Positions 5,083 to 37,971 of a DNA stretch of 37,971 nucleotides are shown piece after piece. Source of the DNA: Methanosarcinales archaeon (lineage in GTDB: Archaea; Halobacteriota; Methanosarcinia; Methanosarcinales; Methanogasteraceae). The stretch lies in assembly GCA_030625165.1 (NCBI GenBank), contig DAOURL010000005.1, forward strand, positions 1 through 37,971. The letters run 5' to 3'. Below the pieces are notes generated by a model, which saw only the letters and a program-made list of their open reading frames with translations, did no database searches and was not told the DNA's origin. A program made the translations under genes and the position numbers. How positions within the stretch are numbered: position 1 is the stretch's first letter; each line of letters opens with the position of its first letter.

Positions 5083-5370
5083 CTACTGTGGACTTAAGTG
5101 CTGTGGATACACGATAACTTCTTTTGTGGCATTGCCATCGCGTACTGAAAGGAGGTATGCGCGACCGCGCCGCGCTGTGACCTTGCCAGTGCGTCCATGA
5201 AACTTGGGGTTCGGCATTCCCTTGTGTATGCTCGGATCGATGATGATATGAGCCATATCTCCCGTTTCGAACTCCTGAATCGCCTTACTGATCGCGGATA
5301 TCCCTCTTTTTCTCGATGATTTCTTTAATTTGTGTCGGGTCTTTCGCCGTTCACCATGTGACTTTGCCAT
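5083..5370 (-). CDS. rpl21e: 50S ribosomal protein L21e
   Basis: '[24 protein letters not shown]...[22 protein letters not shown]'. Confidence 0.93.
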
Positions 5371-5501
5371 ATTCATAACCATACAGGCTCTATGGATTTA
5401 AGTGTTGCGCAGAAAAACATATAAGCATCCGCACATAATTGAAAAGGTGCTAATTCCAATATTAGTTCAGATCAGAAATAAAGACAAGGATGTGATATGA
5501 G

Positions 5502-6461
5502 ATGACAAGTAAATCTTGTAATGCTCTTTTGGCGGTCGTAATCATGGTTGCATTGACTGTTACAGTAGCGTACGGCGCAGAGGTCGCTACAAATACCCAG
5601 TTCTCATCAGTGACACTGGAAGCCGCGGATGTCAACTGTGCAGACTGCCATGCCGGAAATCCACACGTCATCCATGAAGATGGCTTGGGTGCCGGGAGGG
5701 TGACCTGTGAGGCATGTCATGGAGAAGCGTTCGATATCGGTATACCACAGTGCATCAAGTGTCACGCAGGTCCGATACATGAGGTGCATGATGTCACGAA
5801 GGGCGCCGACTGCACAATCTGTCACACTGGCGAGCTTGATAACGTGCACTATGATCTTTTCGGAGGCAAGGAACTCGTATGTGCACACTGTCACGGAGAC
5901 ATCATTGCCGTGCACGGTGAGGGCATGGGCAGTTGTGAGAAGTGTCACAAGACTGCGCCTGACATCGTAGTGCCTACGAAATCAGCAGACATGACGATCA
6001 TGTGTCAGGCATGTCACGACTATGACGATGCTGCGAGCATACACGGAGATCTGTCTGACCCGCTCGGTTGCTACAAGTGTCACAGAACCGCACCGAACTC
6101 AACACCTATGGAGATCCCGCATAATCTGCATATTCCGATCAATGTGGGCTGCGACATGTGCCACCTTACGTCAGATGACAAGATCATCATTCCAGAGTGC
6201 GGCAACTGCCACGATGCAGTGAACATACACCTGCTCTCGAAGATCGGAGTCAGCGCTACTGCGTCAGCGTGTACGGTCTGCCATGGAACACCACCAGGGA
6301 AGGTTGTGAAAGAGACGCCGACTGCTGTGGTAACACAGACAGAGGAGGGTCCTGCAGAGGTGGAGGCGACACCGGCTGGCAAGAGTATTCCAGGATTCGG
6401 AGTGCTGCTTGCTGTGACTGCGCTGGTCATTGCGATGTACTGGCGACGAAGAGATGAGTAG
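5502..6461 (+). CDS. Undecaheme (11 x CxxCH) c-type cytochrome with signal peptide and PGF-CTERM-like C-terminus
   Basis: CADCH, CEACH, CIKCH, CTICH, CAHCH, CEKCH, CQACH, CYKCH, CDMCH, CGNCH, CTVCH; N-terminal hydrophobic signal; C-terminal 'SIPGFGVLLAVTALVIAMYWRRRDE'. Confidence 0.9.
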   Translation: MTSKSCNALLAVVIMVALTVTVAYGAEVATNTQFSSVTLEAADVNCADCHAGNPHVIHEDGLGAGRVTCEACHGEAFDIGIPQCIKCHAGPIHEVHDVTKGADCTICHTGELDNVHYDLFGGKELVCAHCHGDIIAVHGEGMGSCEKCHKTAPDIVVPTKSADMTIMCQACHDYDDAASIHGDLSDPLGCYKCHRTAPNSTPMEIPHNLHIPINVGCDMCHLTSDDKIIIPECGNCHDAVNIHLLSKIGVSATASACTVCHGTPPGKVVKETPTAVVTQTEEGPAEVEATPAGKSIPGFGVLLAVTALVIAMYWRRRDE

Positions 6462-6490
6462 GCGTAATGCCTACTTTTTATTTTATTTTG
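6457..6490 (+). terminator. Hairpin plus T-run after the multiheme cytochrome gene
   Basis: AGTAGGC-gtaat-GCCTACT perfect 7-bp stem followed by TTTTTATTTTATTTT; overlaps the TAG stop codon. Confidence 0.65.
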
Positions 6491-37121: not shown

Positions 37122-37853
37122 CTACTCTCTGCGCCGCATCACCGCATACAGCGCCGCAAGCACTCCTGCTGCTGCGAAGACCGCGGTGAACCCGGGCGCA
37201 TCCTTCTTCGCCGTCCCTGCCATCGTGCCTTCCGCCGCCGGTGCAGTCGTCTCTGCCGCCGCGGGTTTCGCCTTCGTCTGTGCTGGAGTCGGTGTCACGT
37301 GCTCGCTCGGCGGCGCAGCTGTCGCGGTTGCTGTCGCCGATGCTGCCGGTGCTTCTGTCGCGGTCACAGTCGGTGTTGGGGTCTCGAACCATCCCGGCGG
37401 ATATGTGCCGCCTCCGCCGCCGGTTGGTATTGAACCGACGAGTCCGAAGGTACCCTCGAGTCCTTCCAGTGCCTGCTCATCGCTGACGCAATCTGCCGAG
37501 AGCGTTCCGGTGCCGGATGCATTCCACGCCCATACCGTGATGTTTACCCATCTGCCTGGATTGACGGTCTCATTTATGGACGTGTTTATGGACGTGTTTA
37601 TGGTGCCGTTGTACCAGACATCGTTTACGCTGACGTTGTATGAGTCTGTGACGTTCCCGAGGGGTTCGCCAGCAGTCCAGCTGTAGTTCACCCAGTCGCG
37701 GCATGTGGTGTTCGTAAGGTTTGTGGGGTCTGGCGGGATGTATGTTGCCGATGCCAGAGCAGGCGAGATGCAAACCGCAAGCATTGCAGCAGTAAAAGCG
37801 ATTAAGATCACGCTGTTGCACTCTTTCCGAATGCTTCTACTAACTTTCATCAT
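37122..37853 (-). CDS. PGF-CTERM cell-surface protein with one N-glycosylation-sequon-rich Fn3-like module
   Basis: Signal peptide; 'YIPPDPTNLTNTTCRDWVNYSWTAG...NITVWAWNASGTGTLS'; Thr/Pro/Ala-rich stalk; 'APGFTAVFAAAGVLAALYAVMRRRE'. Confidence 0.8.
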   Translation of the reverse strand: MMKVSRSIRKECNSVILIAFTAAMLAVCISPALASATYIPPDPTNLTNTTCRDWVNYSWTAGEPLGNVTDSYNVSVNDVWYNGTINTSINTSINETVNPGRWVNITVWAWNASGTGTLSADCVSDEQALEGLEGTFGLVGSIPTGGGGGTYPPGWFETPTPTVTATEAPAASATATATAAPPSEHVTPTPAQTKAKPAAAETTAPAAEGTMAGTAKKDAPGFTAVFAAAGVLAALYAVMRRRE

Positions 37854-37971
37854 CCCGCGCCCCTGTTTCCAATCATGCCCGCCCGCTGCTACCGCGGCGC
37901 AGACGGATGCCACAAGCGTGTGCGCACGAGTAAGCATGTCGGATGTAGCATTTGCAATCGTTTTATTCTGT

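What the first reader, a model, noticed from the sequence alone, without database searches (positions are those of the whole stretch)
5502..6461. 11-heme cytochrome c with a PGF-CTERM-like surface anchor
Seen: 11 CxxCH motifs in 319 aa, signal peptide and PGF + TM + RRR tail. PGF-CTERM proteins are archaeosortase A substrates (established), so this places a multiheme protein on the outer face or S-layer. Candidate for extracellular electron transfer; it stands alone, without adjacent cytochrome maturation genes in the window.
Basis: partly seen in the sequence, partly recalled or inferred. Interest (0 to 1): 0.7.

Follow-up and report, generated by a model that had tools for sequence, protein, structure and literature searches.

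The report
Lipid-anchored 11-heme cytochrome of ANME archaea
This gene encodes a membrane-anchored protein carrying a predicted chain of eleven hemes in a methane-eating archaeon (ANME-2c); it belongs to a family found here only in methane-oxidising lineages, and probably carries electrons from methane oxidation off the cell membrane towards the outside.

Summary
Window 5502-6461 (+) encodes 319 aa: Sec-type signal peptide, 11 CxxCH motifs at about 20 residues per heme, a Thr/Pro/Glu-rich linker, and a PGF-CTERM signal (PGF, transmembrane helix, RRR). The host is an ANME-2c archaeon. All 22 histidines (11 in CxxCH, 11 elsewhere) are invariant in 72 homologs, which predicts eleven bis-His hemes. 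The family occurs in ANME-2c and in genome groups I infer to be ANME-2a/b, Methanoperedens and ANME-3; it is absent from 103 of 103 Methanosarcinaceae genomes of other genera. In 15 of 15 testable ANME-2a/b-type genomes it directly follows a VhtC-type cytochrome b: the 'Mco' methanophenazine:cytochrome c oxidoreductase of Chadwick et al. 2022, who noted that the ANME-2c homolog lies elsewhere. The window gene is one of two such ANME-2c co-orthologs, apparently a single-gene unit beside ribosomal genes. Best reading: a lipid-anchored pseudoperiplasmic relay taking electrons from methanophenazine oxidation towards S-layer cytochromes. New member of a known kind. No expression, heme or structural proof; AlphaFold gave no usable model.

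The parts
5383..5501 (.). Intergenic region shared by two divergent genes (ribosomal L21e on -, the cytochrome on +); it is more conserved than the cytochrome coding sequence
   Evidence: Upstream 120 bp 96.7-99.2% identical to near relatives (CDS 90.3-96.2%) and 78-90% to far ones (CDS 73-77%); L21e at 5083-5382 -
5409..5425 (+). Probable archaeal promoter element, BRE/TATA GCAGAAAAACATATAAG
   Evidence: Conserved block in 13 ANME-2c upstream regions; recognised by eye, function not tested
5502..6461 (+). Gene for the 319-aa, 11-heme c-type cytochrome with C-terminal PGF-CTERM signal
   Evidence: 11 ANME-2c orthologs aligned; family of 72
5502..5579 (+). Probable Sec signal peptide (residues 1-26, AYGA before E27)
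   Evidence: Hydropathy and invariant A23, G25, E27 among orthologs; cleavage site placed by eye
5637..6284 (+). Heme core, residues 46-261: CxxCH at 5637, 5706, 5751, 5811, 5880, 5934, 6003, 6069, 6150, 6198 and 6270; five two-heme modules (1-2, 3-4, 5-6, 7-8, 10-11) plus single heme 9
   Evidence: Motif positions; all Cys and His invariant in 72 homologs; module layout
6297..6386 (+). Thr/Pro/Glu-rich linker between heme core and anchor (residues 266-295)
   Evidence: Sequence; variable in length among homologs
6387..6452 (+). PGF-CTERM archaeosortase A recognition region (residues 296-317)
   Evidence: Pfam PF18204 above cut-off; PGF in 62, PGY in 7, GGF in 1 of 72 homologs, two rows without these columns
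6456..6476 (+). Terminator-like hairpin followed by T-rich tail
   Evidence: 1 found against 1.3 expected in shuffles, fold z -2.4; hairpin plus T-run recurs with changed sequence in relatives

Best explanation
[quoted passage not shown] It is one of two ANME-2c co-orthologs of the cytochrome c subunit of Mco, the proposed methanophenazine:cytochrome c oxidoreductase of ANME-2a/b. Proposed mechanism: reduced methanophenazine is oxidised at a membrane cytochrome b (McoA/VhtC type, elsewhere in this genome) or another quinol-oxidising module; electrons pass to the heme core held close to the membrane by its flexible linker, run along the heme chain, and leave to other cytochromes and the giant S-layer cytochromes for transfer to a partner bacterium. 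Shown here by computation: motif content, histidine conservation, anchor signal, presence of artA/ccm/mcoA-like genes, phylogenetic distribution and gene linkage in relatives. Inferred: heme attachment, lipid anchoring, the McoA partnership in ANME-2c, and the direction of electron flow.
For: 11 CxxCH and 22 His invariant in 72 homologs. artA, CcmC/F-type genes and CcmE in the same genome. In the f2 genomes (inferred ANME-2a/b) the homolog directly follows a VhtC-type cytochrome b (PF01292) on the same strand in 15 of 15 testable genomes; [quoted passage not shown] 15 of 17 ANME-2c genomes hold an McoA-like cytochrome b; in the host it is at G000:C48 with no multiheme gene beside it. Within Methanosarcinaceae the family occurs in 8 of the 9 genomes of two genera that lack MtaB (inferred ANME-3) and in 0 of 103 genomes of the other genera. 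A divergent subclade lies beside NrfD and FeS genes in 5 of 5 loci, with a molybdoenzyme gene in the 4 whose contig reaches far enough.
Against: In ANME-2c neither paralog lies beside the cytochrome b. Neither paralog alone groups with the Mco-linked clade: holding either with it is mildly rejected (p-AU 0.02 each). The sampled f5 genomes (inferred Methanoperedens; G093 excepted) and the f4:g23 genome (inferred ANME-3) gave no McoA-like match although many carry the cytochrome, so the protein does not require McoA. No expression, heme or structure data; AlphaFold model unusable (pLDDT 38).
Confidence: 0.6

Rival explanations
1. It is a general pseudoperiplasmic electron hub that collects electrons from several membrane modules and smaller cytochromes, with no special tie to McoA.
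For: The family is more widespread than McoA (against 63); one subclade is linked to NrfD/FeS/molybdoenzyme genes instead of cytochrome b; in ANME-2c both paralogs are unlinked to cytochrome b.
Against: Strict linkage to the cytochrome b in 15 of 15 testable f2 genomes.
Confidence: 0.27
2. It is the subunit of a polymeric extracellular cytochrome nanowire.
For: High heme density (about 20 residues per heme) and a repeated two-heme module; nanowire-like structures are mentioned for ANME consortia (PMC12372872).
Against: The PGF-CTERM is conserved in almost all homologs and would tie each monomer to the membrane. No convincing match to a solved nanowire.
Confidence: 0.06
3. It is a catalytic multiheme enzyme, or a terminal reductase at the cell surface.
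For: Multiheme enzymes also carry CxxCH series (general knowledge).
Against: Eleven invariant non-CxxCH histidines for eleven hemes imply that all hemes are six-coordinate, leaving no open substrate site. No enzyme-family model reached its cut-off for the window protein.
Confidence: 0.04

Closest known systems
Mco multiheme cytochrome of ANME-2a/b (methanophenazine:cytochrome c oxidoreductase; Chadwick et al. 2022, PMC9012536)
   Same: Homologous over its full length at about 40% identity, same 11-heme/22-His pattern and PG[FY] C-terminus; the paper itself says a closely related ANME-2c homolog lies elsewhere in the genome.
   Different: Not adjacent to the cytochrome b; duplicated in ANME-2c; some f2 and f4 members have CxxxCH at heme 1, the window protein CxxCH. 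Identity with the paper's accession was not checked; its supplements could not be read.
Small ANME multiheme cytochromes with PGF-CTERM archaeosortase motifs (PMC9012536; also PMC5244752)
   Same: Heme-rich protein with a PGF-CTERM predicted to be lipid-linked; the class is described in both papers.
   Different: Those papers describe the class in general; this report defines one orthologous family within it and its distribution.
CymA-like quinol:cytochrome c step of Shewanella
   Different: Lipid anchor instead of a transmembrane helix, 11 hemes instead of 4; no homology claimed.
MtrA/DmsE decaheme and NrfB pentaheme families
   Same: Weak profile similarity (TIGR03508 in 30 of 36 members; NrfB 2ozy).
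   Different: Far below the family cut-off, and a shuffled control with C and H fixed scored better than the native window protein, so this is not evidence of homology.

Membership tests
Multiheme c-type cytochrome (class III / c7-like) | Multiple CxxCH heme-binding motifs and a match to cytochrome c profiles | tested here: met
   11 CxxCH; PF14522 44.7 bits against 24.8, PF14537 37.7 against 25, PF02085 26.2 against 22.9
Multiheme c-type cytochrome (class III / c7-like) | Export signal and a cytochrome c maturation system in the genome | tested here: met
   Signal peptide by hydropathy; PF01578 at four places, CcmE
Multiheme c-type cytochrome (class III / c7-like) | Covalently attached heme | not testable with these tools
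   Needs purified protein, heme stain or mass spectrometry
PGF-CTERM / archaeosortase A substrate | C-terminal PGF, transmembrane helix, basic tail | tested here: met
   PF18204 above cut-off; TIGR04126 22.8 against 24.5, just below; motif kept in 69 of 70 homologs with these columns, as PGF or PGY
PGF-CTERM / archaeosortase A substrate | Archaeosortase A encoded in the same genome | tested here: met
   TIGR04125, 253 bits, E 2.4e-75, G000:C16
PGF-CTERM / archaeosortase A substrate | Actual cleavage and lipid attachment | not testable with these tools
   Needs proteomics of the mature C-terminus
Mco multiheme subunit | Full-length homology to the cytochrome that follows the VhtC-type cytochrome b in ANME-2a/b | tested here: met
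   Profile E-values around 1e-66 to 1e-77 for the f2 members; alignment
Mco multiheme subunit | Gene adjacency to the VhtC-type cytochrome b | tested here: not met
   Window neighbours are L21e and a TiaS-like gene; the host's McoA-like gene is on contig C48, near ftsZ and a methyltransferase gene. The 2022 paper states the same for ANME-2c
Mco multiheme subunit | Single-copy ortholog of the Mco-linked gene | tested here: not met
   Two ANME-2c paralogs branch together, apart from the Mco-linked clade; joining either alone with it gives p-AU 0.02
Mco multiheme subunit | Physical or electron-transfer interaction with McoA | not testable with these tools
   Biochemistry needed
DmsE/MtrA decaheme family (TIGR03508) | Profile score over the curated cut-off | tested here: not met
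   20.3 bits against 192.2; shuffled control 28 bits
Extracellular cytochrome nanowires | Solved-structure similarity or filament formation | tested here: inconclusive
   No convincing PDB match by sequence; AlphaFold model unusable

The most novel reading that the evidence does not exclude
An 11-heme, all-bis-His, lipid-anchored cytochrome is a signature of the methane-oxidising members of Methanosarcinales (ANME-2a/b, 2c, 2d, 3). It works as a standard 'socket' that accepts electrons from interchangeable quinol- or methanophenazine-oxidising modules (VhtC-type cytochrome b, NrfD-type complexes, or an unlinked partner), and its presence separates methanotrophs from their methanogenic relatives.
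Probability: 0.35. Interest if true: 0.6.

Novelty: new member of a known kind. Interest (0 to 1): 0.42.

Why it matters
How ANME archaea move electrons from the membrane carrier to the outside is a central open question of the anaerobic oxidation of methane. A short cytochrome with an invariant heme-ligand set, predicted membrane anchoring, and presence in the methanotroph lineages but not in the methanogens searched is a tractable target: it could be matured in a host with a Ccm system and tested with McoA. The NrfD/molybdoenzyme linkage in the inferred ANME-3 suggests an electron route for a lineage in which no Mco was found (PMC9012536).

Tried and rejected
AlphaFold2 on the 11-sequence ANME-2c alignment: mean pLDDT 38, pTM 0.18, discarded; no fold search was run on it. 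Similarity to MtrA/DmsE and NrfB: rejected as evidence because a shuffled core with C and H fixed scored 28 bits against 18.8 for the native window core. Viral or Borg-like copies: no confirmed relative in viral contigs. Relatives outside the order: none in a sample of 393 genomes of the phylum, although this pass scored only five candidates per genome. Sigma-70-type promoters: none found, as expected for an archaeon. Transcript data of the ANME-2c E20 culture are in supplementary files that could not be read here. The copies counted as 10-heme by regex have CxxxCH at heme 1 and were not treated as heme losses.

Full report
Observation. The ORF at 5502-6461 (+) encodes 319 aa. It has 11 CxxCH motifs between residues 46 and 261, about 19.6 residues per heme; random shuffles of the same composition never exceeded 2. 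An N-terminal hydrophobic signal, a Thr/Pro/Glu-rich linker and a C-terminal PGF-helix-RRR complete it. Pfam calls cytochrome c7/c3-type domains and PGF-CTERM above their cut-offs; NCBIfam's PGF-CTERM model is just below its own.

Host. The closest named relatives are 'ANME-2 cluster archaeon' HMMV-459B1 and E20ANME2 and uncultured Methanosarcinales (88-95% identity), then UBA261 (68%), which NCBI places in Candidatus Methanogasteraceae. The window is therefore from an ANME-2c genome (G000, 2.30 Mb, 86% complete). It encodes archaeosortase A, four Cytochrom_C_asm matches, CcmE and eleven PGF-CTERM matches at E <= 0.001, all over the family cut-off.

Family. A profile search of the order found homologs in 56 of 150 genomes: 17 of f1 (ANME-2c), 16 of f2, 22 of f5, and one genome of f4 genus g23. 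Within f4 the split is sharp: 8 of 112 genomes have the cytochrome, all in g23 or g27, and all nine g23/g27 genomes lack the methanol methyltransferase MtaB, which 96 of the 112 have. A class-wide sample agrees. A sample of 393 genomes of the phylum gave no hit outside the order.

Heme ligands. The window protein has exactly 22 histidines, 11 in CxxCH and 11 elsewhere. All 22, and both cysteines of all 11 motifs, are invariant in 72 homologs although mean identity between clades is only 33-45%. Few other residues are. That is what eleven bis-His hemes would require. In 14 of 72 members heme 1 is CxxxCH. The heme region reads as five two-heme modules plus a single heme 9. The C-terminal motif is PGF in 62, PGY in 7 and GGF in 1; two rows lack those columns.

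Gene context. In f2 the homolog directly follows, on the same strand, a 265-290 aa membrane protein; the representative tested matches PF01292, the cytochrome b561/VhtC type. This order holds in 15 of 15 genomes whose contig allows a test. It reproduces the Mco cluster of Chadwick et al. 2022 (PMC9012536), including the remark that in ANME-2c the cytochrome lies elsewhere. In ANME-2c the window gene keeps a different, conserved place: divergent from ribosomal L21e, followed by Rpb4, DUF655 and KsgA. It has its own promoter-like BRE/TATA block, strongly conserved, and a terminator-like hairpin, so it looks like a single-gene unit. The host's single McoA-like gene is on contig C48 near ftsZ; 15 of 17 ANME-2c genomes have one.

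Paralogs. ANME-2c has a second copy (in the host at G000:C202, cut by the contig end). Copies A (window) and B form one branch, apart from the Mco-linked clade; grouping either alone with that clade is mildly rejected. They are best called co-orthologs. Long branches limit this. A third subclade (three f2 genomes, two f4 genomes) lies beside an NrfD-type membrane protein and a 4Fe-4S protein, with a Tat-signalled molybdopterin oxidoreductase in the four loci whose contig reaches far enough. So two kinds of membrane quinol-type module occur beside members of this family.

Mechanism. Together these support a lipid-anchored relay between membrane oxidation of methanophenazine and the outer cytochromes. 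Established or published: PGF-CTERM signals are recognised by archaeosortase A, and small ANME cytochromes with such motifs are predicted to be lipid-linked. Shown here: sequence features, conservation, gene presence, linkage, distribution. Inferred: heme loading, anchoring, donor and acceptor, direction.

Limits. No expression data, no structure. The AlphaFold model failed. Profile similarity to MtrA/DmsE is not meaningful: a shuffled control scored higher. Lineage names of f2, f5 and the f4 genera are inferences. I could not check whether this exact gene is the ANME-2c homolog listed in the 2022 paper, so priority may already lie there.

Verdict. A real, correctly described gene; a new member of a known kind, with a sharper family definition (invariant 22-His set, methanotroph-restricted distribution, two linkages to membrane modules) that is testable.

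Noticed in passing
window 37122-37937 (-): A second PGF-CTERM protein in the same window (271 aa, no Pfam match at E <= 0.001, Thr/Ala/Pro-rich linker, ends APGF-helix-MRRRE); profile hit at 37131-37196, 22.6 bits.
   Followed up: partly
window 5383-5501: The promoter/leader between L21e and the cytochrome is more conserved than the cytochrome coding sequence across ANME-2c; whether this reflects two overlapping promoters or a regulated leader was not tested.
   Followed up: partly
L051:3299-12709, L062:5468-15137, L152:5509-15180: In inferred ANME-2a and ANME-3 genomes, NrfD, 4Fe-4S and Tat-signalled molybdopterin oxidoreductase genes lie beside a divergent member of this family; the ANME-3 loci also hold 15-heme (NapC/NirT-like) and 9-heme cytochromes.
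   Followed up: partly
G000:C47:4363-8281: A 672-aa CcmF-type gene beside a long series of CxxCH motifs, resembling the published CcmF2 / ANME MHC-B pair.
   Followed up: no
L097, L098, L099, L041, L068, L101, L075 (ANME-2c paralog B): C-terminal motif is PGY instead of PGF in seven copies, while other copies of the same clade keep PGF; whether archaeosortase A accepts PGY is unknown.
   Followed up: no
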